Below, one piece after another: positions 25,385-56,746 of a stretch of 64,000 nt of DNA. The DNA lies in assembly GCA_025266875.1 (NCBI GenBank), contig JALLLT010000003.1, positions 1,240,001 through 1,304,000 on the forward strand. The letters run 5' to 3'. This DNA is from Fennellomyces sp. T-0311 (Eukaryota > Mucoromycota > Mucoromycetes > Mucorales > Lichtheimiaceae). The notes beneath the pieces are model-generated. The model saw nothing but the letters and a program-made list of their open reading frames with translations. It searched no databases and was not told where the DNA came from. Numbering within the stretch: position 1 is the first letter of the stretch; each line of letters starts with the position of its first letter. A program made the translations under genes and the position numbers.

Positions 25385-25558
25385 ATGCATCATATTTTTG
25401 TCTTTTGCTTTTCCATGGTTCTCTTGGTCTTTACACTCACCTCGGTTTCTGGGTATAGAGGAGTATGTACAAATGCACATTTAACACGAGGCTGTACTAT
25501 GGTCCCTTCTTCAGATCCCAGTATTGAAATGCCGGAGTGCCACTGCCCATCGACATAA
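25385..25558 (+). CDS. Small secreted cysteine peptide, copy A (57 residues)
   Basis: A 58-codon frame, too short for usual ORF cut-offs. The protein starts with MHHIFVFCFSMVLLVFTLTS, a textbook signal peptide, with likely cleavage after VSG at residue 23. The mature part has about 34 residues and four cysteines at 28, 37, 52 and 54: spacing C-x8-C-x14-C-x-C, ending ECHCPST. The gene at 56533 encodes a protein of exactly the same length with nearly the same cysteine spacing, which makes chance unlikely for either. Two disulfides are expected in the extracellular space. I do not know the family and assign no activity; options include an effector-like, signalling or antimicrobial peptide, or a wall component. 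Confidence 0.72.
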   Translation: MHHIFVFCFSMVLLVFTLTSVSGYRGVCTNAHLTRGCTMVPSSDPSIEMPECHCPST

Positions 25559-26159
25559 CACGACCTAGTATTATCTGGCTTTTTCAATGCACCAAAATTC
25601 TTTATTCTGGTTTACACTTTGTTTTCTACATATACATGTGTATCGTCATGAATCAATAAACACCAAGAGCCAAAGTATATAAAAATGGCCTCTAACGTAA
25701 TCCAAATATGGCCAATACTCCAATATGGCTGACGGTACGTAGATACTAGATTCGAGGGGGAGGGTATAGGTAACTGCTGCTATGAGCATCAAAGGAATAA
25801 GAGATTATTGGAACGGATGCGTATCGAAAAATAATCGAAAACGTGTAAGATCGGGGCTAACGGAGACAAGGAAACGTCGGGGACATTATGCACCTACTAC
25901 TTCGTATAAACGAAAAGGGCGAACGGGCGTAGGTAGGCAATGTGCATTTATATGTAGAATTGCATTGTGTATAATACCAATACAACAACGCATATGGAGT
26001 CTATGTAATTGCAATCCAATGAACGACGTAAAAGTGAACCGGCGATTCGCCACATCCGGGAACTGCGGCAGTATTCGAGCTACCAAGTGGATAAATATAT
26101 GTAGTTGACCATTATGAATGATGTATTTATGAATGATTCATATATATGTAAGCTAAATA
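25559..26159. other. Intergenic, no convincing gene
   Basis: About 600 bp between the small peptide and the hydrolase, which converge. A 108-codon plus-strand frame (25782..26108) is very basic and Cys-containing, but has no signal peptide or domain. Confidence 0.35.
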
Positions 26160-27277
26160 TTAGTGTTTAGGAGATCGAACGCACTGTTCAACAAAGCCAA
26201 CGAAATGATCTATTGCCATTTGGCGAACATGAGCATCCTCAACAAGAACATCTGGTAAGAGACTCCATAAATGCACTTGGTCTGGAGACTGGATCAAGGT
26301 GACTGCTACACCGCCATCCCGAGCTCTTGCAGCCAGGAGACCTGCCTCGTCCAAAAGCACTTCGCTACCACCTACAGTAATAAGCATCCGGCGAGGTAAA
26401 GAGGGTGCCAAGTCGACTCTGTCAGGTAAGTAACGGAAAGGCTGTTCTCCTTCTTCTGGGATATAACTCTCCTCCATACGGTCAACCGCTGCGGCAGTAA
26501 AGAAATCAATATCGCCATTCGCCCGCCATGATTCGCCTCCTGCTTCAAGACCTGTGTATGGCGATGCAAAGATGGCTCCGGCGAATTTGGCCTGATGTAA
26601 ATATAGTAGATCGAGTCCAATGGCTGCACCAGCATCGTCGCCACCTACTCGAACAAATGAACACCTCGCTCTGAAAAACAATGAATGTGCGTACCGAGAA
26701 GCAGTTTCGATTGTGGTATCTGCATGACGTTCGTAAGCCATTCGCAAGTTGCCTTTACATCATCCACGGCGGCAGGAAACTGATGGTCCGGCGCTGTTCC
26801 TGAGAAACAGAAGGGTTAGCATCGGTTGTTGTTTGGCTTCCAAAAGGCTACTTGCTGTATTTGGGTACAAAAATGACGCATTTGATATTTTTGTCGGCTT
26901 CGAGTGCACGGATCCATGTGATCCAAGTTCGTATGTAAAGCAGACTCAGATCGAACCGAAAGCCTCCACCTACATACGCATGTTAGTTCGATCGACCCAA
27001 AAAAAAACGTGTACCTTATAAACATGCCTGGGATCCACATGATTACAGCATCGCTTTCGGCGATTCGATCCGCAATTTCTTCTTTTTTGGCTTTAACAAT
27101 GTCTTCGGCGATCCAATAGCCATGATCATCGTCAGCGCGTACCCATCGTCGATTGAAGGGCAACAGTAAACTAATGAGTTTGACAATCCGAGCAGAATGA
27201 CTACTCCTACGCCAACTGAAAGCTATCCGTAGCAAAAAGGTAATGAGCCAACGGCGTAGAGCCCAAAAGAATTCCAT
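26160..27277 (-). CDS. Alpha/beta-hydrolase fold-3 (HSL family) protein with degenerate active site
   Basis: Four exons, 27277..27028, 26969..26856, 26799..26695 and 26644..26160, give 317 residues. Introns 1 (26970..27027) and 2 (26800..26855) need GC donors (AG|GCATGT and A|GCAAGT); intron 3 (26645..26694) is GT-AG. After an N-terminal hydrophobic segment (WLITFLLRIAF) the fold-3 landmarks follow: WIPGGGFRFD at the oxyanion hole, TAPDHQFPAAVDDV, then GGDDAGAAIGLDLLYL at the nucleophile elbow. Active relatives have HGGG and GDSAG; here His is Pro and the catalytic Ser is Asp. The acid (SEVLLDEA) and His (DQVHLW) positions remain. The protein is thus probably a non-hydrolytic relative of steryl-acetyl/carboxyl esterases. 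The start is the first ATG (MEFFWALRRW). Confidence 0.85.
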
Positions 27278-29099
27278 GGAATGTAGTGAGCACAGAAAAA
27301 AAAGAGAGAAGGTGCTTCTATTTTGGGAAAATCTGCGTGTGTGTTTCGCGTTCAATTAGCAATTGTTCATTTTCAGCTGAACGAGATCCCCTTCGCCCCT
27401 CAACGGTATCACTGACGAGATGCCTGTTTCTAAACAATTATCCTCATTGACATACTTTCTGTGCCATACATGTCTCATTGGTCGTTGCCGCAACAGACAA
27501 CTGTGACCAAGAAAATATGTCATACGTATGCCATCTCTCCACAGGATTGCAAGTATGATTAAGCTATGGTGTCGGTATACTATATCCAATCAGCTAGCGT
27601 TGTTGCGATAACATTAACAGTTTCACATATTGCTCCGATTCATCTGACCTTATCGAGTGCAAACATATATACACTGAATCGAGGCTTAAACCATTATTTG
27701 GTTCTGTAATGGGCCGAGGAAATGGCACGATATTTTTTTTGGCATACTTGGTCCAACAAGTGGGGCATTTCCCTCCCCACAGCGTGATATCTTTCAATGC
27801 TTTAAATACAAAAGTAATTCCTGTTGCTTGAGCTTCTTATATGCGTACCTTTGCTATTGCCCAAAGTCAGAAATTGTAGTAGTACACTTAGAACGCATTA
27901 TATTCAGCTGACAATGAATGGCATGTAGCTTACTCGAAACTTTGCAGATAACCATACTGCCAAGCCCTTCACTAAAAGATATACAACGACTATTGTCTAT
28001 ATATGTGAAATTGTAGACAATGGTGGAAAGGTATCTTGCAAGCAAGCTCAAAATAAGCCAACCAAGCGCTTTTATTATTTCATACTTCGGATATGGTGAT
28101 TCAATTGCATGTGTATGTGTGTGTATGAATGAAAAGATATAAGAGTGGCAAACGAGAACTCTTGCTCACTATTCATCGCGAACATTTGTGAGAAATATTC
28201 GAGGCATTACTCTAGGCACATGCATTAGTAGAACCTTGCGCTTTTTAATACATGGTGATGAACGGCAATTAACACCAAATAAGTGGGTGCTGCTAGAACT
28301 TTCTAAAGTATGGAATGTACTATATAAAAAAATTAAAACTGTATGACATTCTGCCATCCAAAGTTCATTGATACGTGTTGTGAGTGGTGGTACTAGACAC
28401 GAGTCAAACTAAACAGAAGCACTTACAGGATCTTTCTCTTTTGCTATTGTTCCAAGTATAGACAGGAGACATAGCGATGACTCTTCCAGAAATGAGAATA
28501 TTCAATGTGAATTAATTGAAAGCCCCATACAAAAGGCTTCCGCGGAACGCATGTGGAGATCTATTAATAAAGTTACAAACACCAATCAAGATAGCTTGTT
28601 GTTTGACGTTTTTCATCTAAAAATCAAGATAAAAATGTGCTGATTATCCAACTATGAACACAATTCATTTTCAATAATAGATCAATGCACTTTTACGAAT
28701 CTAGAATGGGCTGTTTGCAGCATAAACTACATGTGCTATACGCTGGCTTTTCGCTTTCTTTTAATAAAATTGTTCTAGATAGAAACTCTGCGATGGACGA
28801 TAAAGCGCTATGACCAGGCATAACAAAATCATGCGTGCAATGATGCTATATTGCGTAAGGTCATATTTAAAATGAAAAATGTAGACAACTTCTTTTTATC
28901 ATTCGATGGGCTCCCGGAAGATCCAGCTTTCCTAATTCGATTCTTAGCACGTTGTGAAACAACAAGTTGTCGCGTGTCTCTTGTTGTTGTCAAGCCCACG
29001 ATGAGAAAAAACAGAACCTTGTGAACTTTATCAATAATAAAATGACGTACAGATTTAATAAAATAGACTTGTCAGCTGTCTTATCTCTGCGACAACTAA
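27278..29099. other. AT-rich intergenic region
   Basis: About 1.8 kb holding the divergent promoters of the hydrolase and the lyase. Frames at 27594..27797 and 28169..28357 (minus) show nothing recognisable. No repeat or RNA gene was seen. Confidence 0.4.
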
Positions 29100-30047
29100 A
29101 TGGGGGGCTTTGCTTTGCTGGAGACCATCTTGTACGATCCCGCTCAAGGCAAGGATGATTCAAGCATGATCGCCGTACGGAATTACTCAATGAATGCAGA
29201 ACAGGGTTCTACTTGCTCGATCAGCATATTGATCGCTTATTAAAGGCTGCTGCTGATTTCCATGCCAATGACACGTCAAGTTTTGTAACCATTCCATCGG
29301 TTGATCAAGTAAAAACTGTACTACACACGAGTGTTCCCAGTGACTCCACCTTTAAACGTGTAAAGATGGACAAAAAAGGGCAAAAAAAGAAAAAAAAGAA
29401 ACTAACAGGACGAATATAGGTTAGGTTGCTATATGACCAAAAACTATCTGTCGAGTACACAGACCTTGGGAGGGACTACAAAGCGCACGAACAGCTCGCA
29501 AGTGCAGTAACGGGGGATGCATTGACGGTGATGCTAGATACCGATCCACTCCCGTGCGCTGCATCTGACCCGTTCATTGTACACAAAACAACACAGCGTG
29601 ATATCTACAATGACGCACGAAAACGGATGCGTTGTGGTCAACAAGGTGGTCCGTTCGATGTTGTGCTGTGGAACAAACAAGGCCAGGTTACTGAAACTTC
29701 GATTGCTAATATTGCCATTCAAACTGTTGGGGGAACTTGGATAACGCCAAGCTTAGAATGCGGTAAGTAGCATAAAGAGAAGAAAAAAAAGGAGAGAGCA
29801 AGGGCACAAAAAAGCTTATTATTGACGTAGGGTTACTTCCGGGCGTGTTCCGAGATAAACTGCTCAATGCAGACGGCACGATCGTTGAAGGGGTGGTTAC
29901 GGTGGATGACCTGATTAATGCACAAAAAGTAAAGTAAAGTTGTTCGATTTTCTTTATTTTAACAGGCAATAATAGGGCGGATGTCCAATTGTGTGCTTCA
30001 ATTCGGTGCGCAAGGCTTATCGCGTGCAGCTGGATCTATCTGCGTAG
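29100..30047 (+). CDS. 4-amino-4-deoxychorismate lyase (class IV PLP aminotransferase family)
   Basis: This enzyme releases pyruvate from aminodeoxychorismate to give p-aminobenzoate for folate synthesis. Five exons (29100..29148, 29205..29359, 29420..29762, 29831..29928, 29976..30047) give 238 residues. Intron 1 needs a GC donor (AAG|GCAAGG, 56 bp) and joins LLETILYDPAQ to GFYLLDQHIDRLLKAA, the family's substrate-side motif. The PLP lysine is in HKTTQRDIYNDA (Lys124). TETSIANIA and GLLPGVFRD follow, the latter restored by intron 3, and the last exon gives PIVCFNSVRKAYRVQL, the usual C-terminal N-S-V-R block. The ATG (MGGFALLE) directly follows an in-frame TAA. A branched-chain aminotransferase is less likely given the short length and the GLLPG motif. 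Confidence 0.9.
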
Positions 30048-30608
30048 CACCATCAGTTTTACGGTTTGATGGAAAACGTTGACATCGGGCAGATAGCCGA
30101 TGGACGTTGAAGAAGAAAAATAAGGGGGTCTAGTGCTAATAAAAGTATGATGATGATAACGTGCTGTGTCCCCTGCATGAACTCACAATGAGACACTCCC
30201 CTACGTTCTGTTTTATATATATAAAGCGCTTTATTATAGGCTTCGGAAAATCATCTGGTTTGCTAGGTAATACAATTGGATCTTGTCTCCTGAGGAACTA
30301 GAATCAAAATTGGGAAAGGGACGAGTTTGTGGTGGAAAAGGGGGGGAGGGAAGGGTTACCCCATTTCGCCGATTGGTGCCTTTGGAGTAACACGGGCAAC
30401 AGCGGTTACAGGCAAAAGCAAACACTCACCCCCCAGATGCTAGTTTAGGCCGAGATTACCGTTCTTTTGGCATAATAAAATTCTTTTCCTTTCTGCTTTC
30501 TTTCTTGCTTTCCTTTCCTCTTGGTTGTTTCTTTCCCCAACAAAAAACCTTCTACTACTTACACAAGAAACTGCACAGCATCGGTTTTTACTTTATGTCA
30601 TTGACACT
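30048..30608. other. Intergenic, promoter of the downstream regulator
   Basis: About 560 bp. It contains G-rich and then strongly pyrimidine-rich tracts (30480-30540) just before the regulator, a common layout for fungal promoters and leaders. No gene is seen. Confidence 0.4.
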
Positions 30609-32656
30609 ATGTCCAAGAAGACCACTTCGAACGCCTTCCAGCAATCAGCCGCCCAGCCACCAGGTCCAGCTCCCAAACGTGTGAAGGTGACGCTCGCATG
30701 TATTGTGTGTCGTAAAAAGAAAGTCAAGTGCGACGGAGTACAACCGTCGTGTTCACGTTGCAATTCGATGGGTCTTGCTTGCGAGTATTCTGACCCTCCT
30801 CGAAAACGTGGTCCGCCCAAAGGTTACATTGAGGTGATTGAAAACCGTGCGCACCGTATCGAATCTCTGTTGGGTATGTTGTTTGATTATCACCATTTTC
30901 CAAGTCGGACTTAGATGCAGTTTATAGTATGGCATCCGCAGCTGAGGATGCAGCAACCTATTACGGATAAAGTAACCGCGAATCCACAACCTCCAATGGA
31001 TCGTCGATGCTTGTCAACAAATGCCCTGTTGAACCTGGTGTCGACCGCCATTCAAGATATGGCAAACTCGCCTGTACGTGTTCGCTGTAATTGAGAGCCG
31101 TTGTTACAAGAATTGTATCACTGATAAGGTCCATGTTTTGAATCCTTCCCTCTAGGGCAGCCACGACAGGCAATCCGACTTTGTAATGAATGAGCTGGAG
31201 TGGGCCGAAAGCTTCTTTGGCCACTTCAACTTATTTTTTCCGATTCTGTCGCGCCAACACTTTTTGCATCAGCTGCAACACCGCCCGCAGGACATGGACC
31301 CATTGCTTCGATACGCTGTTCTGGCCCTCGGAAGCCGCTATGCCACAAAGAGTCACGAGGTCAGCGCCCACTTTTTCAAGCGAGGCCAGCAGGTTTTGAA
31401 TACGTCCCATGACAGCATCAGCACTCTGCAGGTAACCATATAACACAGAATTATATATGACACCAACGGGGTGTGTGTGTGTGTGTATATGTGTTTTTAT
31501 ATTTATCGCAATATACCCTGAATTGTAGTCTGTGGTCATCATGTGCTGGTATGCGTACCTTTCCGGCGATATGCAAACGTGTCGCCAACTCCGGCACAAA
31601 CAAGCTGCCCTGGTTTTGGACCTTGGTTTGCATCGCGACCCAGACCAGTCCCTTGGCATTGTCAACATGGAATTGCGTAGGCGTGCGTTTTGGGTTGCCT
31701 ATGTAACCAATCAATGGCTTGCATGCTGCACCGGTGAGCCCTTGATGCATCGCGAAATACACTGGGATTGCCGGTGGCCCCAACTCGAAGATAGCCAACT
31801 CCAAGCTATCGATTCCAAAAACTTGCAGCAAGAGACTGTCCCCGTGGCCTACGCACTACAAATCACCGTGTTTGCCGAAATGATCAAATTAACCAGCATT
31901 ATCGACGACCATTTCTGGAACAACAACGATACGAATGCACTCACAGCTTGGTTTTTAAACTTGCCGTCGTACTTGGAATACAGTCAGCCCGATAATGGAC
32001 CACCATCGCCCCTCACTCGTGTGTACCACATGCTTTACTACACAGCCCAGATCATGTTGCATCGCCATTCTGACACCTTGGGCGTGTGCAACACTGCCGC
32101 CAACACGATCATTCACATTGCCGAACAAATGCTTCAACACGACCAAGACAGCTACCTTTCCAACACTTACTTACTCGGCGTATCACTGGCCACCTCGATC
32201 CACCTCGACAATAACTCGGCACATATCAGCAAAAGCATTCGCGTGTTCAAGGATGCCAACAGCACTCTTTTGGACCGCTTGCAATTCGATACGTTGGTCG
32301 ACAATTATTTATTGCACGATCGTCGCATTTCGCTTGATGACGAGCACCAATTCGTGACAAAGAAACGGAAACGTGACAAGACATCAGGCGAGTTGGATTT
32401 AAATGATCTGCTGGGCCTGTTGGATTGGCCTAGCCAAGAATGGTTCGATCCAAATGCCATGATCGCCATGCCAGCCGACACATCATCGTCGTCAGGCTCA
32501 CCCACCAATTCATGTTTCTCGGCTTCACCTACACTATCATGCGATCCGCTGCAAAAGATCGACACCGAGTTTCTAGCTCCTTTTCTCGACCTTCCACTGG
32601 ACGCTTACGCATGGCCTGATTTCATACCAGGAGGAAATCAAGACCTAACTGGGTAA
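30609..32656 (+). CDS. Zn2Cys6 / fungal_trans transcription factor
   Basis: A 604-residue fungal regulator in four exons: 30609..30873, 30928..31073, 31156..31431, 31529..32656. The zinc cluster has canonical spacing (Cys31, 34, 41, 48, 51, 58; ACIVCRKKKVKCDGVQPSC), followed by a short linker and a coiled-coil-like ENRAHRIESLL. The fungal_trans region begins at about residue 150 with FFGHFNLFFPILSRQHFLHQL and continues through SRYATKSHEVSAHFFKRGQQVL, MCWYAYLSGDMQTCRQL and LVLDLGLHRDPDQ, with RRRAFWVAYVTNQWLACCTGEP as the typical second block. The exon 1/2 junction (intron 30874..30927) is the least certain; it is the only option that keeps frame. The 97 bp intron 3 contains a GT microsatellite. 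Architecture is like XlnR/Ace1-class regulators; targets are unknown. Confidence 0.9.
31470..31487. repeat. GT microsatellite inside an intron
   Basis: An alternating G/T run lies in intron 3 of the regulator, between donor 31432 and acceptor 31528. Confidence 0.8.
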
Positions 32657-32972
32657 CCCGACGTTTCAAAAAAAATATTCATTCTTCTATTGTTTTACTT
32701 TTTTTTCCTGTACGTAATTATGGGTTTTTTATGACGGGCTACATACTTTTTTCTTTCTTCTATTGTGCACGGGAATCACCCTTTCTTCTTTCATATGCCA
32801 CATCTTCCCCTTCATCTTATCATCAATCCAGTCATTTTTCTTTTTTTTTTTTTACATACGCATTAAAACAGACTTCTTTATGCAGCTGCATTAAGCCGAC
32901 GCCGGTCGGCCATTCAAAGTTAAAGAAGCTCGTTCCGGTTTCGGATCCCTCCTCTATCTTACCGAACAGAAA
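32657..32972. promoter_or_regulatory. RPL8 promoter and leader
   Basis: This 316 bp region has several long T and C/T tracts (for example 32838-32853), typical of ribosomal-protein promoters. It also holds the terminator of the upstream regulator. No TATA box was seen. Confidence 0.45.
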
Positions 32973-33906
32973 ATGGTACTTGTCGAATGGATGAATGCGT
33001 GGATGAACAGATAGAAAGAATGGATGGATCAATCGGATGAACGGATGGATCAATTTTCGTCGACTTTTTTTTTTCTCGGTGGGCTAATGTCGCAACGAAA
33101 CGATGTAGGCTCCTGCAAAGAAGTCCACTGGCAAGAAGGTTGCTCCTGCTCCCTACCCCATCAAGGGCAAGCAAACGACCAAGACCAACAGCAACCCGTT
33201 GTTCGAAAAGCGTACCAAGAACTTTGGCGTTGGTCAGGATGTTCAACCCAAGCGCGATGTGTCACGTTTCGTAAAGTGGCCCGCATACGTCCGTCTTCAA
33301 CGTCAAAAGAAAATCATCTATCAACGTTTGAAGGTTCCACCTGCTCTTAACCAGTTCACCAACACTTTGGATAAGAACACTGCCGCCCAACTCTTCAAGT
33401 TGGCCGAAAAGTATCGTCCCGAAACCAAGGTCGAAAAGCGTGAACGTATCCGTGCTGCCGCCGCCGCCAAGGCCGAGGGTAAGGAGGCCATCAAGACCGA
33501 TAAGCCCGTGGTCGTCAAGTACGGCTTGAACCACATTACTGCCTTGATTGAACAAAAGAAGGCTCAATTGGTCGTTATTGCTGACGATGTCGACCCCATT
33601 GAATTGGTCATTTTCTTGCCTGCCTTGTGCCGCAAGATGGGCGTTCCATATGCCATTGTCAAGGGTAAGGCTCGTCTCGGCCAAGTCGTTCACAAGAAGA
33701 CTGCCACTGCTCTGGCCTTCACTGAGGTCTCGGAAGCTGATAAGGCTGAATTGGCAAACTTGGTTTCGGTTGTCAAGGCAAACTACAACGAAAAGGCTGA
33801 TGAAATCCGCCGTCAATGGGGTGGAGGTATTAATGGTCCCAAGTCAAACGCTCGTCTTGCTAAGCGTGAGGCTCTGGCGGCTAAGGAAATTGCTGCTCGT
33901 CAGTAA
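32973..33906 (+). CDS. RPL8: 60S ribosomal protein eL8 (yeast L8, human L7a)
   Basis: A large-subunit ribosomal protein of the L7Ae/L30e RNA-binding fold. Exon 1 codes only the start Met (32973..32975); a 133 bp intron (32976..33108) follows and exon 2 is 33109..33906. The 266 residues equal human L7a in length. Diagnostic stretches are [32 protein letters not shown] and the L7Ae core [20 protein letters not shown], then [20 protein letters not shown] and [14 protein letters not shown]. Codon use is strongly biased (GTC, AAG, GAC) as in highly expressed genes. The start-codon intron is typical for ribosomal protein genes of fungi. I find no snoRNA C or D box in that intron, only GGATGAA-like repeats. 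Confidence 0.97.
32985..33052 (+). repeat. GGATGAA/GGATGGAT-type tandem repeats in the RPL8 intron
   Basis: Several imperfect copies of GAATGGATG, GGATGAA and GGATGGATCAAT occur between the donor and the pyrimidine tract of intron 1. They may be an intronic enhancer or simple slippage; both are inference. Confidence 0.55.
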
Positions 33907-42231: not shown

Positions 42232-44811
42232 TTTTTTTGTAAAGCTGGTAAAAAAAAGCTTTTTTGACAACCTTTTCAATTTTTATTGGCGGCTCTTTAA
42301 CTTTCAACAGTGAGGCTTTGCGAACAAACGACAGTTGCGTTGAGATTTGCTGAAAACCTATAAGAGCGAGAGAAAGAAAATGTGCTGCTCGTGCTAGGAA
42401 ATGTTTATGTTCTGTTTGTTTTAAGGTCTGGCTGGCGATCTATTTAACTTTTGGTTGCCATGACAACCTAGTTATCAGTGGTGAAGCCATCGATCCTGGG
42501 CGAGTTACTGACTTGATCAGCGATTGGATATAGATACATTTTGTACAGAAATTATGGACGCACCCAGTATTTATAAGGGCTTAAAATTTTTGCGGCAAAG
42601 GAAAGAGATTACTTAATTTCTTTGCCTTCAAGCGTGATTTACAATGCGTTTTTGCGGTGTAGGAGCTTGTTTTAACTTTACAACTAGACACACAACAGTG
42701 CTAGACCGTTAAATCTGTGTCTCTAGCGTTATTTGGAACCCAGTTATGGTTACAAACGCGTAGATACCTACTAAACGAAAATAAGCCAAAAGCATTTAAA
42801 GGAGAAGAGTCAGAGGTGAAAAGCATACAAAATGAAATGCCAAAGTAAGAAGAACACATGAAATGACAATGATACGAAATCGACAAATTTCGATGAAGTC
42901 GAAAAACCAAAGGCTTAGTGCCTTGGAAAATCACAATGATGGCCTTTATCGTCGAATAGAAACTGATCCAACGATCGGATTTCCATACTGTATTAGCACT
43001 TTTTGAAGAAAACTCAAAGACGGACTCGGTGGTGCCAACAGCTAGTCAATCCAACGACGCAAGAAACGCTCACTTAGAGTAATATGATTTTCGTATTTTT
43101 TCGAAATACAAAATAATTAGCCCAAGTGAAGGCATGTTTTGCTATTTGTAATGGTTAGCCCCAGCGAGGAGCAACACGGGATAGCTTAGTTTGGCTTGTT
43201 GACGTGGTTTGGGACCAATATACAACAAAAATTAGCGCGACTTTGGAAGGAATTGAGCCAAAAAGTAGGTCCTGAAAACGGCATATTTGAAAATGCTAGA
43301 AAAGTCAAATGCGAAAAGGCATTGTGATTGAAAGTGCTATGCAAAAAAACACAGAGAATGGATAGTTGGAGAGAATACAACTATAAAGTTATGTATACAG
43401 CGCTACCTTGCGAGTTTTTGTTCTTTTTTCCAGGTCAATAGCACCAACTGGAAGTTCAATAAACTTTTGTCTATGTGATATACCAAACCATGAATATTTT
43501 ATAGCCGTTAATTTTGTGGCGCTAGCTTTCCTTTGGGACTGAGATATGACTAAAAGTAGACCAGTATCTGGTAGACACAGACTGACGCTTTTCTGAGCGA
43601 CCGCTGAACTTTTTTGGGTTAGAATTCCACATTTAGTTGATCAGGTCACTTGCTGGGACGTCTTTTGTATTTAATGGCCACCTTTTGTCTTGCTTCTCTT
43701 CTGACAGTGAAATCGGATGCGGGCGCATTGACACCACCGGCATCGACTTGTCCCTGGCATACGAAGGACCGATCAATGGAGCTCAACAGCGCGAGAGTAT
43801 GCCTGATGCGTGTATCGTATAAGCAAAACTACCGTTTCAATACAAGTCACCGCGTATTGCTTGTGTTTGGTATAGGGGCACTGAGCTATGTTTTCCTACT
43901 TTCGTCCGGGTACAATACATGTTATCAACAGTGATGGATAAGTGAAAATTACTTTAGGAACTGAGTAGCAATGAACGCTTGATGAGGATTAAGTAGCCAA
44001 TGCCTCCTTGGCTGCGTACAAGATCCTCGTTGGCGCTTACGACGACAATTGAGCCGTCGCTAAACTTCTGTGTTCAATTGCGATATCCAACGTGGATTAC
44101 ACTGCGGCTTCTTTCCCAGCACCTGGTTAGAAAGTTTAACCAGTGGACGAACAGCAGCAACAAGATCAAGGAAGAAGACATGATCTAGCAAAAACTTCAG
44201 TGCTTTATCGACTTCTGTAATATTACGATACTAAAGTATCTGATACCTAACCAACAGTAACGAGTGGAACTATTCCTCAAAAGCCACTTTTTCCTGATCC
44301 ATCGACATTCATTACCAAGTCGCATCTACTGGAGTAACGTAATCGAAAAAAAGTTACACCAGACCTACATTTGTATTTTTTACCTCTGAATTTACCTTTA
44401 CATGATACATCTTTACAAAATACGTACTTATGAGTGCACAAGCGCAGCGTGCTCTTTGAGTCGACGTATATTATATGTGTAGCATTCTAGAAGCAGATGC
44501 TTGGCCTAAAACTGAAACAATTGGGACGCGGGCGTATGACTCGAGTAGTATGTACCTAGTACGTTTGTACAGTGTCAAGGGATTTGGGTATAATAATCAC
44601 ATTCAATTTGAGTATTGCAAGCCAACACGGCTATATTTTATTGCTAACTATGTATATTCAATCCGCATACGTGACCCAAACTCTATATACAACGAGGTAG
44701 TCGAATTCAGCATTGGGAGAGCTACTTGACGACATCATCCTAAATCTCGTCTCCTCTGGTGCTTGCCCTTGCTTCTTGGTTGCTTTTAATGAATCATGCA
44801 AATATGTGGTT
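42232..44811. other. Long intergenic region, possibly decayed sequence
   Basis: About 2.6 kb. Around 43637-44190 several overlapping frames stay open for 60-95 codons and base composition is less AT-rich, as if an old coding sequence had decayed, but I recognise no protein. The rest is spacer with the KRE33 promoter at the left end. Confidence 0.35.
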
Positions 44812-47291: not shown

Positions 47292-47293
47292 TA

Positions 47294-48127: not shown

Positions 48128-49191
48128 CTGTTCCATGGTATGGTGCAGAACGTAGCAAGGCATGTATGGGAAAAGACTGTCTTTCGGTATCTACCTGTTT
48201 TAATTAATTGCGGAGAGGAGATCGTGGAGTGCATGAAAAACATCCGGTGACAATGATATCGGGTACGGAGGATCATTGTTAGTGACAAGCATATATAAAA
48301 CTGCAAGATAGAAGCAGCGGCAGCAGCAGTAAGAAGCTATCATCTTGAAATAAATTCTCACAAGCTTCACAGTTAAAGTTTAGTAATTCGGACGATATCA
48401 TGATGACATAACGCATTAGTATCTTGCTTTATAGCAAAGATCATTCGAGCGAATATTACAAAGAAGCGTGAGAAAAGCTTCCACGCTGTACAAGTGCAGA
48501 TTCCTTTGTGTACCTATGCGGCTTACAAATGGTACCATAGAGTGGATGACAAGATGCTTTCGTAATGCTGTCGCGCGTGCTCGGCTGAGTCATGGATTGG
48601 TAACCACGGAATCACACTCATGTCCAGGTGCATAGCAAAGAGACCACGCCAAGCGACGAAGGAAGCAAGAAGGAAAAAAACATATGACCAATCAATATAT
48701 TGATTCCTGAACGTGGCAGAACGAATCGCAATGGTGAGCTGACATCGAAAGTTGGATGGATGGAAAAAAAAAAGTAAACAATATGTTTCAATGAATCGGG
48801 TCGGTATGGAACGGACCGGCGGGAGGGCCCAAAAGAGCAAAAGATAAAAATAGTCGTGTGATTGTGCATGCGAGGATCTCTGTGGAAGGATGAATAAGGA
48901 GGAGGCGATGAAAATGGGGCAAGTGGGCGGCGCATCATCACCCCTAGCTTGTAGAATGGCGCATCATTTATGGATAAACTATCTACGTCACTTTGTTCTG
49001 ACTCATAGTTTTGAAACCGCGTCCAAAGACAGAAAGAGACTGAATTTTTTGCGCACCTCTCTTTTTACTCTTGAAATGAGCTTTGCCTTTTAAAAGCCCT
49101 TTCTCTCACAACTAAACTTCTTCTTCCTGCTCTTTCCACCTGAACTTTCCCCGATGAACATTGTCTGTTATACAACCTATATTATTCAGCA
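48128..49191. other. Intergenic region upstream of the W2-domain gene
   Basis: About 1.06 kb. Minus-strand frames at 48523..48941 reflect an A/G-rich plus strand and show no domain. The last 150 bp are C/T-rich and probably contain the promoter and leader of the gene at 49192. Confidence 0.35.
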
Positions 49192-50667
49192 ATGGCAAGT
49201 TATCCTTGGCAACCCTTCTCCTTATATTTCGGTGTCCGACAAACCGCTCTCCATCGCCGTCTTCCACCATGGGAGCTAATGAAGATCCTGTACGAGCCAT
49301 CCGAAGACAGTGCAAGCAACACATCTTCGTCTTTCGACTCTGTCGATTCCGATCCGCCGCTGAAGCACAAGAGACGAAGCTACCGTCTGCTCCTCCGAGA
49401 AATCCGCCGTCTGCGAGCCGAGAACGACGGTCTGCGCAAGATGGTAGACACCATCAAGCAGGATTTGCGGTTCGAACGAGAAAGTCGTCAGATCTCTGAA
49501 CGGTGCCATCAAAAATACTACAACGAGTCATCCGATCGACAAGAAGCATTAGAGGTCGATGTGATGGACAAGGAAAAGGAGATCCAAGACTTGAAGCAGC
49601 GTCTGGCCAGCCTGGAATCCACATCGCCCACGCCCGTCTTGACCAAAAGTGCGTCGTTTTCCCGTTGGGGATGTTTTGATTTCGACGACGACGACGAATT
49701 GTTTTGTCAACCTGTTATGGGCGAGTCTGCCGCCCCCGATCCACTTTCCATTCCGCGGTCCGATTATTGCATGAGCTCCAGCGAAGAGGAGGAGGAGGAC
49801 GACGACGACGATGAGGACGACGGCCAATCCGACGACGAAAAGTTTGAACAGCTGGCCACATCCTACCTTCAACAGGCCATCCTGTCAAAATTGACCAGTG
49901 CACGTGCCAATCTGGAGCTGGACGACCTGATGCTCAAGTACGATCCCTCCCCGGCCGTCGTATTGCGTATGCTGGCGTCGTCCTTTGTCATCTGGGTCAA
50001 CAATGTGGTCACACCCGACTCAACCAATGTCGTCAAGCAATTGGCCAACGATGTGACCGAAGGCTTCCTAAGCTTCTGGAAGGCCATCCTGGAGAAGCAT
50101 GTGCATGACGATGCCGACCAGTACCAATTCCTGAACGAGGCCGAACGGATCCTTGACACACATTCCCTGATCGTTGAGAACTTCCATAGACTCCTGATCA
50201 TGCTCTACAAGTATGATATCATCGACGGCGATGCAATTACCCACTGGTGGCACGAAAACACCCAAGATGCCGTGGCTCGTCGCCTGCGCAGCGTGACGCA
50301 ATCATTCGCTCAGTGGCTCGACGAGGACGAGGAAGACGAGGATGAGGATGACGACAACATGACTGACGACATGGCTGAAGAAGATAAAGATCATCATGAG
50401 GATGACGATCACGAAATCGAATTGGAAATCAGCAGTGACAGCGACACGGTGATTGACCAGGGCGATACGCTCAGCAATCTGCTTGAAGAAGACCGCCAAT
50501 ACTGTGCATGCCAGTTCGAGCCCACCAACACCAAAACCAACCATACCACCCCCTCTGCACATATTCAACCTCCCGAGCAATCGGGGTCCTGTAAATGCGA
50601 CATTACATACACACCTCCACATACAGCGGAAAAGAAGCCCAAGAAGACCGTCCGCATCCTGTTGTAA
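49192..50667 (+). CDS. Coiled-coil protein with a W2 (eIF2B-epsilon/eIF5-type) domain
   Basis: A 491-residue single-exon protein. Residues about 60-145 form a charged coiled coil (RLLLREIRRLRAENDGLRKM onward). An acidic run (EEEEEDDDDDEDD) comes next, and residues about 220-390 read like the HEAT-type W2 domain of eIF2B-epsilon: LSKLTSARANLELDDLMLKY, FLSFWKAILEKHV, LIMLYKYDIIDGDAITHWW and FAQWLDEDEEDEDED with the aromatic/acidic end typical of W2. The nucleotidyltransferase and hexapeptide parts of eIF2B-epsilon are absent, so it is not that subunit. A C-terminal tail has several Cys (CAC, CKC). It may bind translation factors, by inference. The start could also be the in-frame ATG at 49279. 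Confidence 0.85.
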   Translation: MASYPWQPFSLYFGVRQTALHRRLPPWELMKILYEPSEDSASNTSSSFDSVDSDPPLKHKRRSYRLLLREIRRLRAENDGLRKMVDTIKQDLRFERESRQISERCHQKYYNESSDRQEALEVDVMDKEKEIQDLKQRLASLESTSPTPVLTKSASFSRWGCFDFDDDDELFCQPVMGESAAPDPLSIPRSDYCMSSSEEEEEDDDDDEDDGQSDDEKFEQLATSYLQQAILSKLTSARANLELDDLMLKYDPSPAVVLRMLASSFVIWVNNVVTPDSTNVVKQLANDVTEGFLSFWKAILEKHVHDDADQYQFLNEAERILDTHSLIVENFHRLLIMLYKYDIIDGDAITHWWHENTQDAVARRLRSVTQSFAQWLDEDEEDEDEDDDNMTDDMAEEDKDHHEDDDHEIELEISSDSDTVIDQGDTLSNLLEEDRQYCACQFEPTNTKTNHTTPSAHIQPPEQSGSCKCDITYTPPHTAEKKPKKTVRILL

Positions 50668-50745
50668 ATAAATATATCACCTACATTAGCCTACATCTCT
50701 CCTGTTAAATAAATCCTAGTCCACTATCCAAAACACACCGCGCGG

Positions 50746-51045
50746 ATGACCGGCGGCACGGTGGCAACGGTGGCGCCGTGCTGCTCTTTGTATATAAAGA
50801 ACGAGGCAGAACGTGTGATGGAAACCAATCGAAGCATGCCCTTCATCTGGATCTACGAAGTCGACCCCGAGCATTGGCTCCCCTTCGACCTTCAGACGAG
50901 CAACACCATCGAAGTCCTGTGGCGGAACGGAGCAACAGCCACATTCTTCATGCCGTGCTTCAACGCAATAGGGTGCGTATACCCCGTTCAGGGCTTCATC
51001 ATGGTCCGGAACTCACGCTACACAATCGCACGCGACGGCTGCTAG
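50746..51045 (+). CDS. Small WWE-like domain protein
   Basis: A short protein starting only 78 bp after the W2 gene. The core (FIWIYEVDPEHWLPFDLQTS, then NTIEVLWRNG, FIMVRNSRYTIARDG) follows the WWE pattern: two spaced aromatic Trp positions, a pfd/ns stretch, an E-W pair and a closing basic/aromatic strand. WWE domains bind poly(ADP-ribose) or act in ubiquitin ligases. The start is uncertain: the first ATG (50746) gives 99 residues, but TATATAAAG at 50791-50799 lies inside that frame and would fit starts at 50818 (75 residues) or 50836 (69 residues). Either way nearly the whole protein is this one domain, which is unusual; WWE normally sits within larger proteins. Confidence 0.6.
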   Translation: MTGGTVATVAPCCSLYIKNEAERVMETNRSMPFIWIYEVDPEHWLPFDLQTSNTIEVLWRNGATATFFMPCFNAIGCVYPVQGFIMVRNSRYTIARDGC

Positions 51046-51229
51046 ACAACAATAGAAAATGGAGACACTTTGGCCATGTATATTCTTTTTTTCTCCACAC
51101 TGCACGATGGGAGAGAGAAGGCAATTTTTTGATGTTGCGAATGTAAAAAAAAGGTGCGATGAAGGGCGAAAGAAGAAAAAATTAAATACAGTCGTGGAAG
51201 AGAGGGGGAAACGCAAAGTGAACTTTTTT

Positions 51230-52235
51230 TTACTGGCTCCAGTAGGGCTGCTGCCGACCCATAGGTGATGGCTGTTGAGCAGACGGCGCTTGCTGTTGCT
51301 GCTGCTGCTGCTGTCCTGGCTGCTGCTGCTGGAAGTGAGGAAAGTGTTGCTGAGGATACTGCTGCTGGTACGGGAACGAGTGCCCGCCAAAGTAGTTGCC
51401 GGGATTCACCGCCTGCTGGTACGGCTGCTGCTGCGGCTGCTGCTGATGGCCATTGCTTGGACCCGCCGCGTTGGTTGCAGACTTATTCACGTCTGCCTTA
51501 CCGGCCTGCTGCTGGTTGGGTGCCTGCTGCTGCTGCTGAGCTTGCTGAGGCTGCTGGTTGCCCAGAAAGCCGGGCAACTGCTGCTGGTATGGTTTTTGAT
51601 AATCATGCAATCCTCCCATGCCGCCCAAATGATGCAAACCAGCCATATCATCGTAACCACTGGCGCTCGACTGTCCGTACATGTTTTGCGAGTACGGTGA
51701 TCCAGAAGCACCGTAGGGAGACGCCGTGCTGCCGGTGTTGGGCTTGCCAACCGAGTGTTGGTACATGTTGGGATACATGTTCTTGTTCAAAAATGGCTGA
51801 CCATACGCAGATTGCTGGTACGTGAACTGGTTGGGCATGTAGTAGTAAGGATAGTATGGCATGTTGGCAGGGTACATCTGCTGAGCAGCGCCAGGCGTTT
51901 GTGCACCAGAATGCTGTGGCACCGACGCAACGCCATCCTGGTTATGCTTGTCACGTCCTTGGTACGTTCCTGCAGATGTAGCGGATGGGGATTGGCTATA
52001 AGTGGAAGGGTCGTAGTAACCCTAAAATGCAATTGAGTTAGAAAAAAAACATGTCGCGTGGGATCACGTGAAGTCGGTCAACGTACCATTGCTGCAGCAC
52101 GATGAGCCTCTGTGCCATAGATACCGTATTCCGGGAGCGATCCCATTGGGCTGACGCCAAAGCCGGACAGGTTGGCAGGGTGTTGGTTAGGCAAGTAAGA
52201 ACTGTAACCAGAGGCAAGCTGATCCACGCCGAACA

Positions 52236-52278
<43 letters not shown>

Positions 52279-53972
52279 TGGCTGCTGTTGAACATGAGTT
52301 TGCTGTGGCTGTGCTTGCTGTGCAGAAGCTTCCTGTTGAGGCTGCTGGGGTTGTTGAGGTTGCTGCTGTTGGGGTTGTTGCTTCAAAGGAGCGCTTCCAA
52401 ACGCGTCACCATAGCGCTCCTGGTTCTCTGGAACAGCCTCTTCTTGGTCTCTGCAACTCCTGTTTAATGACTCACACACGCAACAACAAAAAGCACGCGT
52501 CGTTTTACCTGTTGTTCTCGGTTTGCACAGTGGTCTTTGCAATCTCGACCGTTTCTGCCGTGTTGTCATCGAGATTCAAGCTACCAAACTTGACACCAAT
52601 GGTGCTGAGAGACGCACTGTTGTTAGGCAATACAACGGGAGCGTCCTGCTTCAAGCGACGGGCCGTCGAGGACTTCCTGGTGACGGTTTCTTCCTGAGGT
52701 TCAGGCTCGTTCTCGGCAGGCTTCTCTGTCTCCTTGGTTTCAGTCTCCTCAACAGCAGCTGGTTTAGCCGATGGCTCCTCCCACAGATCATTGGCAGCAG
52801 TTGTAGCGGCAGGCGCGTTCCATTCGTCCGTTGCAGGCTCATTCCATGCATCCTTTGCAGCTGGCTCCTCCCAGCTATCCTTGGCGGGCTCTTCATTTTG
52901 AGCAGCAGAAGCAGCAGGTTCATCCCACGAATCGTTTGGTGCGTCCCATCCACTCTTCTCTGTGCTCTCAGGCTCCTGTTTCTGCGGTTCTGGCTCGGCC
53001 TTGGGTTGTGTTCTGCAGGCAAAAATGAGTTTCTCATTGCATTCTGAGGGCACTACGACACTTACTTGAGTAGGCTAGCCCATGTTTTAGGTGGTTCAGA
53101 TGACGTGGGTTGTGATGCTGCTGCTGTGGTTGACGCTGCTTTAGTTTCTGCTTCTGGTTCAGGCCCAGTGCTGTCCCATCCGCTGGAAGTGTTTACTGGC
53201 GCATCCCATCCCCCGGCAGCTTCGGTCGTAGTAGTCGTAGTGGTAGTGGTGTTGTTGGTGGCACCCCAAGAGTCATCAGCGTTCACTTTGCTAGAGGCGA
53301 TGGATGCCCACGAATCGCCGTCCGGCTTGAACGATGTGGTAGTTGGTGGAGCGGTGCCCCATGTTGCTGCTTGTACGTGCGGGCCAGTGTGGTTATTCGA
53401 TTGTCGCGGCCCAGCACGCGAGCCATGCCCACCACCACGACCTCCTTTGCAAAAAATAACATACGCGTCAGCTCAGATACAAAAAGCCAGAAATTAAAAG
53501 CGAAAGCACATACCTCTTCTAGATCGGTCATTGTTGCCTCTGTATGACTGTGGCCGTTCTGGGCGATGTGCATTTTGTGCAGGTGCCGGCGTGGCGGTGG
53601 TAGTGGTGGTGGCCGCCGCTTGCTTGGCTTTTTGTGCCGCTGCCTCTTTCTTTGACTTTTTGCTTTTCACCTCACCCCATTGAGACACATGGCCTGCCAG
53701 ACGTTGTGGAATGAGCACCTGCGCTTGCAATACTATGCCCATAAACACATACCTTCACTGATTCGGTCTACTGCTAGTTCGAGATCCCCGTCTGCCTCTT
53801 GAATGGCAAACAAGAGATCATCGTCTGACCAATCTGTGAATAGCTCTCTGAGCGTGGATAGCTGTGAGCCGTATTTCGATTTGAGCTTTTTCAAATCAGA
53901 TTGTTCGGACGAGCCAAAGGATCTGTCTCCAGCTGTCATAGATTGTGTGGAGCGTGATCCGTGCGAAGTCAT
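51230..53972 (-). CDS. DEF1: RNA polymerase II degradation factor Def1 (CUE domain, Gln-rich)
   Basis: Def1 recruits the elongin ubiquitin ligase to stalled RNA polymerase II so that Rpb1 is degraded. Six exons (53972..53753, 53693..53514, 53444..53066, 53012..52509, 52450..52087, 52021..51230), introns of 53-69 bp, 812 residues. The CUE ubiquitin-binding domain is at residues about 28-73 ([20 protein letters not shown], with the LELAVDRI helix). After a basic linker ([18 protein letters not shown]) come Trp-containing acidic repeats ([21 protein letters not shown]), then long Gln-rich stretches including a pure Gln run, then a Tyr/Gln/Pro-rich C-terminus. This order matches yeast Def1, whose Gln-rich tail is trimmed to allow nuclear entry. 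Confidence 0.9.
52237..52280. repeat. CAG/CAA (poly-Gln) trinucleotide run in DEF1
   Basis: On the minus strand this reads as a pure run of Gln codons in exon 5 of DEF1. It mixes CAG with CAA, so it is partly interrupted and less prone to slippage than a pure CAG array. Confidence 0.8.
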
Positions 53973-54179
53973 TAAGCTTTGTGATTTTAATCTGCAAAGC
54001 GAAAGAAAGGCGGTTGTGTTAGACAGGCTGAATATAAAGCCATCAGAAACAAGGGATGCATTACGTGTCTTTTTGAATCCTTCTTTTTTTCCCTTCCCTC
54101 TCCTTTAATTGTCACAAGAAAATGTCACGAAGAAAAAAGAAGAACAGCAACAAAAACCAATCGCATGCGTCTAAAATTT

Positions 54180-55488
54180 CTATGATGGCACGGCGGAGTA
54201 CCGAACGGGCTGCTGTGACGGCAAGAGACCTGTCGACTCGTTTGCTTGCTCGTCCTCATGAAGCAGGCCCTCGGCAACCGTCTCTTCTTGTATCGTTCCA
54301 GAGCCTCGTCGCCATGACAGACATATCACGCCGCCGATCGTTACCGCAACCCCCAGCATCACGCACAAGAGCTGCCACCACCGCAGTCGGTCCCACTGAT
54401 CGTAGTAGACCAGCCCGTTGAACAGACACGACACGTTGAATGCGCAGAACGACAATGGAATCAGTATCACCGTGTCACAAAGACGCAAACCTTTGTTCAG
54501 ATAATACAACTATGCATCACAATGAGGTCAATCACGCCGCATGATAATGAAAACCCATTTTCCGTCTACCTGCAGGATGGCTGTTGTTATTGTCATAACA
54601 ACCAAAATCCAGGTCCAAGCATGATGAAGTTGGTCTTCACCGTAGATGATGCTCAGAATAAACAGCTCGAGCCCGCTTTTGGCGAATAAAAGGCTCTGGC
54701 TGCTGACGTTTCCTGAAAGAACGCCATAACTTCATCTTATATTGGCATTATTGAAAAGCAACCAGCAAAGAGACACGTTTACCTGACGCCAATGTACATT
54801 TTGAGATCGGCCATACTGATCCATTGGCCCAGTAGCTTGCGATCGGCAGGGTCCAACTGTTCTTCGTGCTGTTCAATCTCGTTGTAGCGGTACTCGAGAT
54901 AGTGAGTGGATATCATGGTGATCAGAATGAACGATTCCAGAATGCTAAAATAGATGATGAATGCCGGCTTTTTGTACAGCTCGATCAAGTCCTCCAGGCT
55001 ATGGTTGGGCTCTTGAATGGCTCCAAACATGCCCACCAAGAGAGCACCAATGATAATAAGCAACGTTCCTAATCATCCCTTAATTACTCTATCTTATTTT
55101 ATTCTGAAACGCTCAAATGATAAAGTATACCCCATATGCTGAGTCGCGTGAACGGATCTCCCAGCACCAGTCGAGCTGCAATTGCGTTAAATACAAGATT
55201 CATCGCTCCAATAGGGGCCAATATCACCACAGGCAAATACCCGATGGAGAATACCGACCCCGTAATGTTGGCCGTCAGGTATGTAACGAAACTGACCACC
55301 CACAGTGGCCGCCGGAACGAATGCTTTCGCAGTTCGCGAGGGTATATTTGATCGTTAATAATATGTGATTTCCGTTGAAACGCCATTGCAAATGCTTGAA
55401 TGAGATTTGTGATGAGGGAGATCCCAATGCCGATCCAAAATGATGCATCATATGTGTATATCGTTAACGAGTAATCTATGAAGTTCAT
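54180..55488 (-). CDS. NIPA-type magnesium transporter
   Basis: A nine-helix membrane protein of the NIPA (Mg_trans_NIPA) family, which imports Mg2+ in animals; the fungal substrate is inferred. Four exons: 55488..55131, 55068..54783, 54729..54570, 54509..54180; 377 residues. Landmarks: the first helix FWIGIGISLITNLIQAFAMA, VFSIGYLPVVILAPIGAMNLV, NAIAARLVLGDPFTRLSIWG, TLLIIIGALLVGMFG, SGNVSSQSLLFAKSGLELF, and the last helices ending in GVAVTIGGVICLSWRRGSG. The intron 2 acceptor is an AAG at 54730-54732, needed to give YGVLSGNVSSQ. I start at MNFIDYSL (55488); an upstream in-frame ATG at 55545 adds a stretch read from a poly-T leader and is less likely. The C-terminal tail is acidic and polar. 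Confidence 0.88.
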
Positions 55489-56532
55489 AATGTACGACGG
55501 GTAGAAAAAAAAAGGTAATATCGGCAGAGAGAAAAAGCACCGCATGAATATTACTACCGCAATTAGTTGAGGAGGTAACTTTTCCTTGGCAGTACACCAC
55601 GCCCGAGGAGTTTTTTTTTTAAGACGTCAGAAGTGGTGTCGACCCGTGTCACTTGACAGCGATTGCTAATTATAGTGGGACCTGAAACTGTCTTTTCGCA
55701 TTACTAGACTTTAACCATCATCGCCATGATAGACTCTGTTATACTTATAAAAGGATGTCTATAGTGATAATTGGGAAGTTCGAGAGGTGAAGCAAAATTG
55801 ATATGCATATATGTAGTCGCCATATACTACTACATAAAGCTCGTTTATTCGCCTCACTGCGTTGCATAAAGAACTAACTGGTCAAACAGTTCTTGAAAAC
55901 AAGATACAAGTGTTGATGAGACGTGTCAAGCGCATACTCCCCCCTCATTTACTACGCAGTATGCTCTTGAATGAGTGCGTAAGTTGAGTCAGATGAAAAG
56001 TTGTATTGTTAGCGTTGTTGGTTTATATGTTTCGTATAGAACGATTAGCCATCAATTGAAACTCTCCAAATACGAGATTAGCAATTTAAGAATTCCACAA
56101 CAGCATCTAATTATGAGCTTCAGTACGTATTGAATCATGGAATTAGTTCATTAGCAGGCATTCACTCCTTCTGCCCATCCTCGTTATCATCACCTGCAGT
56201 TAGACAGCGTGAGCTCTCTAACAGATTTCTGGCAGTGCATACAATACTGTGTTTTCATCATTCTTGAGCGTAATACCAAAAATTTTTGTATTGCCAAAAA
56301 AAGGCCTACAGGATCCAACGTAAAGGCTTCTATATATAATGATGAGATATACGATTTTTCATCAGACGTATGCACAGGCATCTCTTCGCTCCAACATATC
56401 AGTGCTAATTTATCAGCGTCATCTCACTGGTATATAGGCAAGTTTTTTATTTTCATACGAGGTACTGCGAAACGTACAGTTATACGCTAACACTACTTAT
56501 AAAATCTAATTATATCCGTACATTATGTGCAA
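55489..56532. other. AT-rich intergenic region
   Basis: About 1 kb with no gene supported. Short frames at 56190..56490 on both strands lack any protein character. Confidence 0.35.
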
Positions 56533-56706
56533 TTAGGAGCAGACGCATTTACCGAGGCCAAATCCAAGGCCGCCGGGGGTTTCGTAACGGCAGTTGGCTC
56601 CAAGTTCTTCGGCTAAGGTACAGGGACCAGGATGACTTTCTGCAGCAGAGACAGCAGAGAAAAACAAGAGAGCCATGGAAGCAACAAGAGGAATCGAGAA
56701 ACGCAT
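56533..56706 (-). CDS. Small secreted cysteine peptide, copy B (57 residues)
   Basis: A 58-codon frame, the same length as the gene at 25385. It starts MRFSIPLVASMALLFFSAVS, a clear signal peptide with an ASA-type cleavage site (likely after residue 21). The mature part has about 36 residues and four cysteines at 29, 39, 54 and 56: spacing C-x9-C-x14-C-x-C, ending KCVCS, against C-x8-C-x14-C-x-C in copy A. Between Cys 2 and Cys 3 lies a Gly-rich GGLGFGLG stretch. Apart from the signal peptide and cysteines the two sequences have diverged. The peptide should be exported with two disulfides. No activity can be assigned. Confidence 0.75.
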   Translation of the reverse strand: MRFSIPLVASMALLFFSAVSAAESHPGPCTLAEELGANCRYETPGGLGFGLGKCVCS

Positions 56707-56737: not shown

Positions 56738-56746
56738 AGCTTTTAT
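56738..56746 (-). promoter_or_regulatory. TATA box of small secreted peptide copy B
   Basis: On the minus strand ATTATAAAAG lies about 35-40 bp before the ATG at 56706. Copy A also has a TATAAAAG element. Confidence 0.55.

What the first reader, a model, noticed from the sequence alone, without database searches (positions are those of the whole stretch)
25385..56706. Two unannotated 57-residue secreted peptides with the same cysteine frame
Genes at 25385..25558 (+) and 56533..56706 (-) both have exactly 58 codons, a strong signal peptide, and four mature cysteines spaced C-x8-C-x14-C-x-C and C-x9-C-x14-C-x-C. Both end within a few residues of the last Cys and both have a TATAAAAG element upstream. 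Other residues are unlike, so the frame appears to be kept while the rest changes fast. Neither passes a normal ORF length cut-off, and both sit in AT-rich gene deserts, the usual place for rapidly evolving secreted peptides. This could be a family of lineage-specific extracellular peptides that annotation pipelines miss.
Basis: partly seen in the sequence, partly recalled or inferred. Interest (0 to 1): 0.85.

Follow-up and report, generated by a model that had tools for sequence, protein, structure and literature searches.

The report
Fungal family of tiny secreted peptides
The two tiny genes belong to an unnamed family of small, probably secreted, cysteine-braced peptides in one mould's genome, mostly missing from protein databases, in which the scaffold is kept while one loop changes fast.

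Summary
Its 45.6 Mb genome holds at least nine intact single-ORF genes of 52-59 codons: hydrophobic leader, C-x8-C (x9 in one), a 10-14-residue loop, then C-x-C near the end. An architecture scan of 264 kb found exactly these nine; reversed DNA gave 0, random DNA 0.05. A profile of the other eight recovers the first peptide at E 3.7e-8 (mature part alone 3.7e-4); the second fails the mature-only test. Exact TATAAAAG precedes 6 of 9, against 0 of 31 long ORFs. A tenth copy has lost its fourth cysteine. No Pfam, PDB or outside protein relative was found. Two of nine are in the protein collection, so 'unannotated' is wrong for the first. Models show a helix between C1 and C2, then a hairpin ending in C-x-C. 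C1-C2 is conserved (29%, shuffles 9%), the loop barely (11%, 6%). Best reading: secreted peptides displaying a variable loop to extracellular partners. Expression, secretion and relatives remain untested.

The parts
25385..25558 (+). Member a: 57-aa secreted-type peptide, C-x8-C-x14-C-x-C, tail PST
   Evidence: held-out family profile E 3.7e-8; matches the C94 copy at E 0.022
25385..25453 (+). Predicted signal peptide of member a (cleavage point inferred)
   Evidence: 10-residue hydropathy maximum 2.94; cleavage point by the -3,-1 rule (recalled); no SignalP run
25290..25297 (+). TATAAAAG element, 95 nt upstream of the ATG
25655..25660 (+). AATAAA, possible poly(A) signal, 97 nt after the stop
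   Evidence: no background count made
56533..56706 (-). Member b: 57-aa secreted-type peptide, C-x9-C-x14-C-x-C, ends one residue after the last Cys
   Evidence: three paralogs found directly at E 2.9e-5, 1.9e-4 and 2.7e-3
56644..56706 (-). Predicted signal peptide of member b (cleavage point inferred)
   Evidence: hydropathy maximum 2.59; first residues MRFS shared with three paralogs
56740..56747 (-). TATAAAAG element, 41 nt upstream of the ATG
56777..56784 (-). Second TATAAAAG element, 78 nt upstream of the ATG
56446..56451 (-). AATAAA, possible poly(A) signal, 82 nt after the stop
   Evidence: no background count made

Best explanation
The two ORFs are paralogous genes of one dispersed family of small secreted peptides. 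SHOWN by computation: nine intact single-ORF genes, a shared hydrophobic leader, four invariant cysteines (C-x8/9-C-x10..14-C-x-C), TATA-like elements upstream of each, at least one decayed copy, and a leader and C1-C2 segment more conserved than the C2-C3 loop. INFERRED: the leader is cut by signal peptidase (no dibasic processing sites are present). Two disulfides form in the secretory pathway and brace a short helix (between C1 and C2, opened by an S/T-x-x-E/D capping box in 7 of 9) against a beta-hairpin that ends in C-x-C. The variable hairpin loop is then shown to extracellular partners. My best guess is surface molecules or proteases of competing microbes, so that the peptides act as inhibitors or antagonists, with duplication and divergence supplying new specificities. 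My confidence is about 0.93 for 'real family of secreted-type cysteine peptides' and about 0.4 for 'loop-displaying antagonist or inhibitor'.
For: Paralogs found genome-wide from b, c, d, e, f, g and i, and weakly from a (d at E 0.022) and h (g at E 0.038). Architecture scan: nine in 264 kb, controls 0 and 0.05. Held-out profiles recover nine of nine with E 2e-15 to 8.6e-4. TATAAA within 160 nt upstream of 10 of 10 copies, against 7.5% of random stretches and 4 of 31 long-ORF upstreams; exact TATAAAAG in 6 of 9 intact copies, against 0 of those 31. Two AlphaFold models, of b and i, agree on a helix between C1 and C2 and a hairpin through C-x-C (pLDDT 82.9 and 77.6). Region identities: leader 0.31 and C1-C2 0.29 (shuffles 0.11 and 0.09) against loop 0.11 (shuffles 0.06).
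Against: No transcript or peptide data were available. No relative was found outside this genome. With the mature part alone the held-out test fails for b (rank 92, E 34) and is marginal for h (E 0.94, first non-member 1.1). In the full-length test a and h rank one place below a segment outside the nine (E 5.2e-9 and 7e-9), which I take to be the decayed copy listed. The decayed copy used as query found only itself at E up to 10. Leaders are compositionally simple, which inflates similarity. Intactness was a criterion of the scan, so 'nine of nine intact' is partly selected. The two models share the same nine rows, so they are not independent; pTM is 0.48 and 0.39, and Foldseek found nothing convincing. 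Disulfide pairing was not determined. No target is known; net charge of the region from six residues before C1 is -1 to -10, unlike classical cationic antimicrobial peptides.
Confidence: 0.55

Rival explanations
1. The peptides are signals between hyphae (self or non-self recognition, development), read by a surface receptor; paralogs differ in specificity.
For: Small, acidic, secreted-type peptides with a variable loop; dispersed paralogs, each with its own TATA-like element.
Against: No receptor-like Pfam domain among the 20 window ORFs scanned, of 61 of at least 120 aa listed; a receptor need not be adjacent. Mucorales mating is known to use trisporoids rather than peptides (recalled).
Confidence: 0.2
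2. They are cell-wall or spore-coat structural peptides, cross-linked through cysteines.
For: Secreted type, four cysteines, multigene family.
Against: Variable loop and acidic charge; a structural role would predict a more conserved surface (inference).
Confidence: 0.12
3. The family is a relic: once functional, now untranscribed and decaying.
For: One copy has lost the fourth cysteine (C106:115529-115684) and two further weak segments may be fragments. Seven of nine did not come up in the protein collection.
Against: Nine copies keep frame, leader and all four cysteines at identities of 25-50% to member b, which is not expected without selection, though intactness was also a scan criterion. 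TATA-like elements are retained.
Confidence: 0.1
4. The two window ORFs are chance frames unrelated to each other.
For: Directly compared they share little beyond the frame (25% identity). b's mature part alone is not recovered by the rest.
Against: Controls 0 and 0.05 against nine observed; held-out profile E 3.7e-8 for a and 1.3e-11 for b, and 3.7e-4 for a's mature part alone.
Confidence: 0.03

Closest known systems
Fungal defensin-like peptides with the CS-alpha-beta fold, including the Zymoseptoria superfamily (PMC5234102; abstract and passages seen)
   Same: Small cysteine peptides in many diverging paralogs within one fungal lineage; helix followed by a strand carrying C-x-C. The abstract says most Zymoseptoria members might have lost antimicrobial activity.
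   Different: Four mature cysteines instead of six; no C-x3-C helix motif, C-x8-C instead; single ORF, whereas the Zytrisin genes have two introns (passage); acidic; no defensin match by sequence or fold here.
Fungal small secreted cysteine-rich proteins and effectors in general (recalled kind)
   Same: Leader plus short cysteine-bearing mature part, orphan sequence, variable family members.
   Different: The genus is recalled as a saprotroph, so no host is implied; the four-Cys frame matches no Pfam family.
EGF-like and follistatin-type modules (weak Foldseek rows: MSP-1(19), SPARC/BM-40)
   Same: Small hairpin with closely spaced cysteines (recalled).
   Different: E-values 2.9 and above, probability 0.14 or less; not evidence of kinship.

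Membership tests
Fungal small secreted cysteine-rich peptides (broad kind) | N-terminal signal peptide | tested here: inconclusive
   Hydropathy maximum 2.27-3.20 in nine of nine and shared leader residues; no SignalP available
Fungal small secreted cysteine-rich peptides (broad kind) | Short mature part with several conserved cysteines and no known domain | tested here: met
   Four invariant Cys in nine of nine; no Pfam match up to E 10 in nine of nine
Fungal small secreted cysteine-rich peptides (broad kind) | Transcribed and found outside the cell | not testable with these tools
   No RNA-seq or proteome at hand
CS-alpha-beta defensins | Six Cys with C-x3-C in the helix and C-x1-C in the last strand (PMC5234102) | tested here: not met
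   C-x1-C present; C-x3-C absent; four mature Cys only
CS-alpha-beta defensins | Helix tied to the C-x-C strand by two disulfides | tested here: inconclusive
   Models have a helix followed by a hairpin with C-x-C; pairing not determined
CS-alpha-beta defensins | Sequence or fold match to solved members | tested here: not met
   No defensin among 3 sequence rows, 0 fold rows for b, or the 50 of 100 fold rows shown for i

The most novel reading that the evidence does not exclude
A previously undescribed minimal helix-plus-hairpin scaffold with two disulfides, used by a Mucorales mould as a loop-display platform: one fixed frame and one hypervariable loop, expanded by duplication into a set of extracellular binders. 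It would be an early-diverging-fungus counterpart of defensin-like or conotoxin-like diversification.
Probability: 0.35. Interest if true: 0.7.

Novelty: new variant of a known kind. Interest (0 to 1): 0.48.

Why it matters
Genes under 60 codons with no relatives tend to fall out of annotation, so secreted peptides of early-diverging fungi are easily missed (general knowledge). Here two ORFs in one window led to a coherent family of nine, seven of which did not come up in the protein collection searched. If expressed, they give a compact system for asking how new extracellular peptides arise and diversify in Mucorales, and a simple frame (leader, C-x8-C-x10..14-C-x-C, TATA-like element) for finding more.

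Tried and rejected
Protein collection: P0002 alone found nothing; the four-member profile found only the C13 gene model P0003; the nine-member profile found only P0003 and P0001 itself. Pfam on the two and then the nine: nothing. PDB by sequence: 3 rows, the best a phosphofructokinase at E 0.06 over 22 positions, taken as chance. Foldseek against PDB for b: no row, so the VIA second look had nothing to align. BFVD for b: 3 rows at E 5.8 or more. PDB for i: 100 rows at E 2.0 or more, of which 50 were shown. Rfam on the window: none.

The 6-mer TACGTA lies within 160 nt upstream of 7 of 10 copies, against 6.4% of random stretches, 8.8% of AT-rich ones and 3 of 31 long-ORF upstreams; but it was picked out after the fact from all 6-mers and its place varies from -11 to -153, so I do not claim it as a regulatory site.

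Flanking DNA, up to 3 kb each side (less for d, g and j, at stretch ends): matches at promoter and start between f and the decayed copy (about 110 nt, 77%) and between b and d (72 nt, 75%); no longer match adjoins a gene. One 562-nt stretch at 71%, starting 1.6 kb beyond c, matches DNA about 8 kb before d and is unexplained; shorter matches near c, e, f, i and the decayed copy look like dispersed repeats. So no recent segmental or transposon-carried duplication is evident, but the 562-nt stretch was not followed. Codon-position comparison: I draw no dN/dS from it.

Papers: listings only (no paper). No title in these eight searches names this family; I did not read those papers, and the library is open-licence only. 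PMC5234102: abstract and passages. PMC8778642: passages, no Fennellomyces in its text.
Full report
OBSERVATION. The two ORFs are present as described: 57 residues each, at 25385..25558 (+) and 56533..56706 (-), with TATAAAAG upstream of both. In the mature parts the frames are C-x8-C-x14-C-x-C and C-x9-C-x14-C-x-C.

WHICH ORGANISM. The window is contig C106 (1,589,151 bases), positions 1240001-1304000, of a 45.6 Mb, 182-contig genome. A profile search returned a protein named as Fennellomyces sp. T-0311 from a contig of 1,025,303 bases, the length of contig C13 where one paralog lies, and its sequence contains that paralog. The taxonomy gives Mucorales, Lichtheimiaceae. The identification is an inference from contig length and sequence identity.

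A FAMILY. Member b found three paralogs directly (E 2.9e-5, 1.9e-4, 2.7e-3). Searching with these and with later finds gave nine intact members: a window 25385+; b window 56533-; c C13:53653-53811-; d C94:283860-284027+; e C148:47444-47605+; f C148:45557-45715-; g C106:1221272-1221433-; h C106:1225630-1225788+; i C106:101285-101464+. Several of the links are weak one by one: a found only itself at the default limit and d at E 0.022 with a looser one; d found a at E 0.21; h found g at E 0.038; e found g at 0.053 and i at 0.17. g and i find each other at about 5e-5. A consensus query, built from the members and so circular, recovered eight of nine (h missed) plus a tenth locus, with no other match up to E 10. 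The tool warns that its counts are lower bounds.

CHANCE. In 264 kb (the window plus 20 stretches of 10 kb taken around members and along C106) a scan for the architecture gave nine ORFs, which are the nine members; reversed DNA gave 0 and 20 Markov replicas averaged 0.05. Held-out profile tests against 5506 six-frame segments recover every member: c 2e-15, e 2.9e-14, b 1.3e-11, f 4.8e-11, g 1.5e-10, i 5.1e-10, d 6.7e-10, a 3.7e-8, h 8.6e-4. In these tests a and h stand one rank below a segment outside the nine, which I take to be the decayed copy below. With the leader left out, seven of nine (a, c, d, e, f, g, i) still rank just below the training members with E at most 0.007 (a: 3.7e-4); h is marginal (0.94, first non-member 1.1) and b fails (rank 92, E 34). 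So b's kinship rests on its leader plus its pairwise hits, two of which run to residue 56 of 57.

DECAYED COPIES. The tenth locus, C106:115529-115684 (+), has the leader, C-T, C-x8-C and a third Cys, but lacks the fourth; the nine-member profile scores it at E 3e-8 and the consensus at 0.086, while as a query it found only itself. It keeps a TATA element 66 nt upstream. A segment just downstream of g (E 3.1) and a weak segment in L033 (E 0.005) may be further relics. I read this as birth and death of copies. Six of the ten loci lie on C106, which is 3.5% of the genome (binomial 3e-7); each of the six also came up in a genome-wide search. e/f and g/h are divergent neighbours, 1.7 and 4.2 kb apart by coordinates.

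GENE ANATOMY. The nine are single ORFs of 52-59 codons without dibasic sites. TATAAA occurs within 160 nt upstream of 10 of 10 loci, against 7.5% of random stretches and 4 of 31 long-ORF upstreams; TATAAAAG occurs in 7 of 10 (6 of 9 intact), against 0.9% and 0 of 31. The 31 are first-ATG upstreams of ORFs of 250 aa or more, some of which may be exon and not gene starts. In e the TATA-like element is far off, at -136. AATAAA or ATTAAA was found within 250 nt of the stop in seven of nine (a, b, c, d, f, h, i), not in e or g; no background was counted.

PEPTIDE ANATOMY. Four cysteines are invariant in nine of nine. C1-C2 spacing is 8 in eight and 9 in one; C2-C3 is 10-14; C3-x-C4 is constant; the tail is 0-10 residues. 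After C1, S/T-x-x-E/D, a helix capping box (recalled motif), occurs in seven of nine, not in a or h. Pair identity is 0.31 in the leader and 0.29 between C1 and C2, against shuffles of 0.11 and 0.09; in the C2-C3 loop it is 0.11 against 0.06, just above the highest of 200 shuffles (0.099). Net charge of the region from six residues before C1 is -1 to -10. AlphaFold models of mature b (pLDDT 82.9, pTM 0.48) and mature i (77.6, 0.39), made from the same nine rows, agree on a short helix between C1 and C2, a strand after C2 and a strand at C-x-C, with the variable loop as the turn of the hairpin; b has a further short strand before C1 that i lacks. Disulfide pairing could not be read from the tools.

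RELATIVES. No homolog beyond this genome was found. The last, with all nine, returned only P0003 (the C13 gene model, 80 aa with a longer start) and P0001 itself, on a 1,589,151-base contig. So two of nine are in the protein collection; that the other seven are not is inferred from this profile search, with b also searched alone. No Pfam match in nine of nine; no useful PDB match by sequence or fold. DNA of other Mucorales was not available, so 'lineage-specific' remains open.

HOW IT MOST LIKELY WORKS. Shown: a family of small precursors with a hydrophobic leader and a fixed cysteine frame, kept open over large divergence. Inferred: secretion, two disulfides, a helix braced against a hairpin, and a variable loop that meets partners outside the cell. 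A defensive or inhibitory role against other microbes or their proteases is my first choice (0.4 for this functional step); hyphal signalling is second. The acidic charge argues against a membrane-lytic antimicrobial.

COMPARISON. The nearest known arrangement is the CS-alpha-beta defensin-like group, where a superfamily of 132 typical and 63 atypical members was described in the genus Zymoseptoria (PMC5234102: abstract and passages). Here C-x-C is shared, but the C-x3-C motif, the six cysteines and the introns are not; membership is not met, while a similar mode of working is possible.

SURROUNDINGS. Of 61 window ORFs of at least 120 aa, 20 were scanned with Pfam. Near a are a Zn-cluster ORF, PPR ORFs and an alpha/beta-hydrolase ORF; near b, a NIPA-like ORF below the cut-off and, 4.6 kb away, a MULE transposase ORF. 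Nothing suggests a shared function.

Noticed in passing
window 61350..62318 (+): ORF with a MULE transposase domain (Pfam PF10551, E 2.7e-8), 4.6 kb from member b.
   Followed up: no
window 42911..43231: A dispersed repeat: 321 nt at 70% identity (95 nt of it at 81%) shared with DNA about 1 kb beyond member f on C148.
   Followed up: no
L042, 1.6 kb downstream of member c, and L043:2165-2713: A 562-nt stretch at 71% identity shared between DNA beyond member c and DNA about 8 kb before member d; nature unknown.
   Followed up: no
L038:9529-9684 (C106:115529-115684): Decayed family copy that lacks the fourth cysteine but keeps the leader and a TATA element.
   Followed up: partly
L026, just downstream of member g (segment L026_-_2_2909): Segment resembling the C-terminal half of member g (profile E 3.1), perhaps a relic of a tandem copy.
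   Followed up: no
L042 5653-5811 (-) and P0003: The database model of the C13 paralog is 80 aa, with a longer N-terminus than the MRFS start shared by paralogs; its first residues differ from the genomic six-frame segment, suggesting an added upstream exon in that model.
   Followed up: no
upstream of seven of ten copies, -11 to -153: TACGTA palindrome more often than in random stretches, at scattered places; a lead only.
   Followed up: partly
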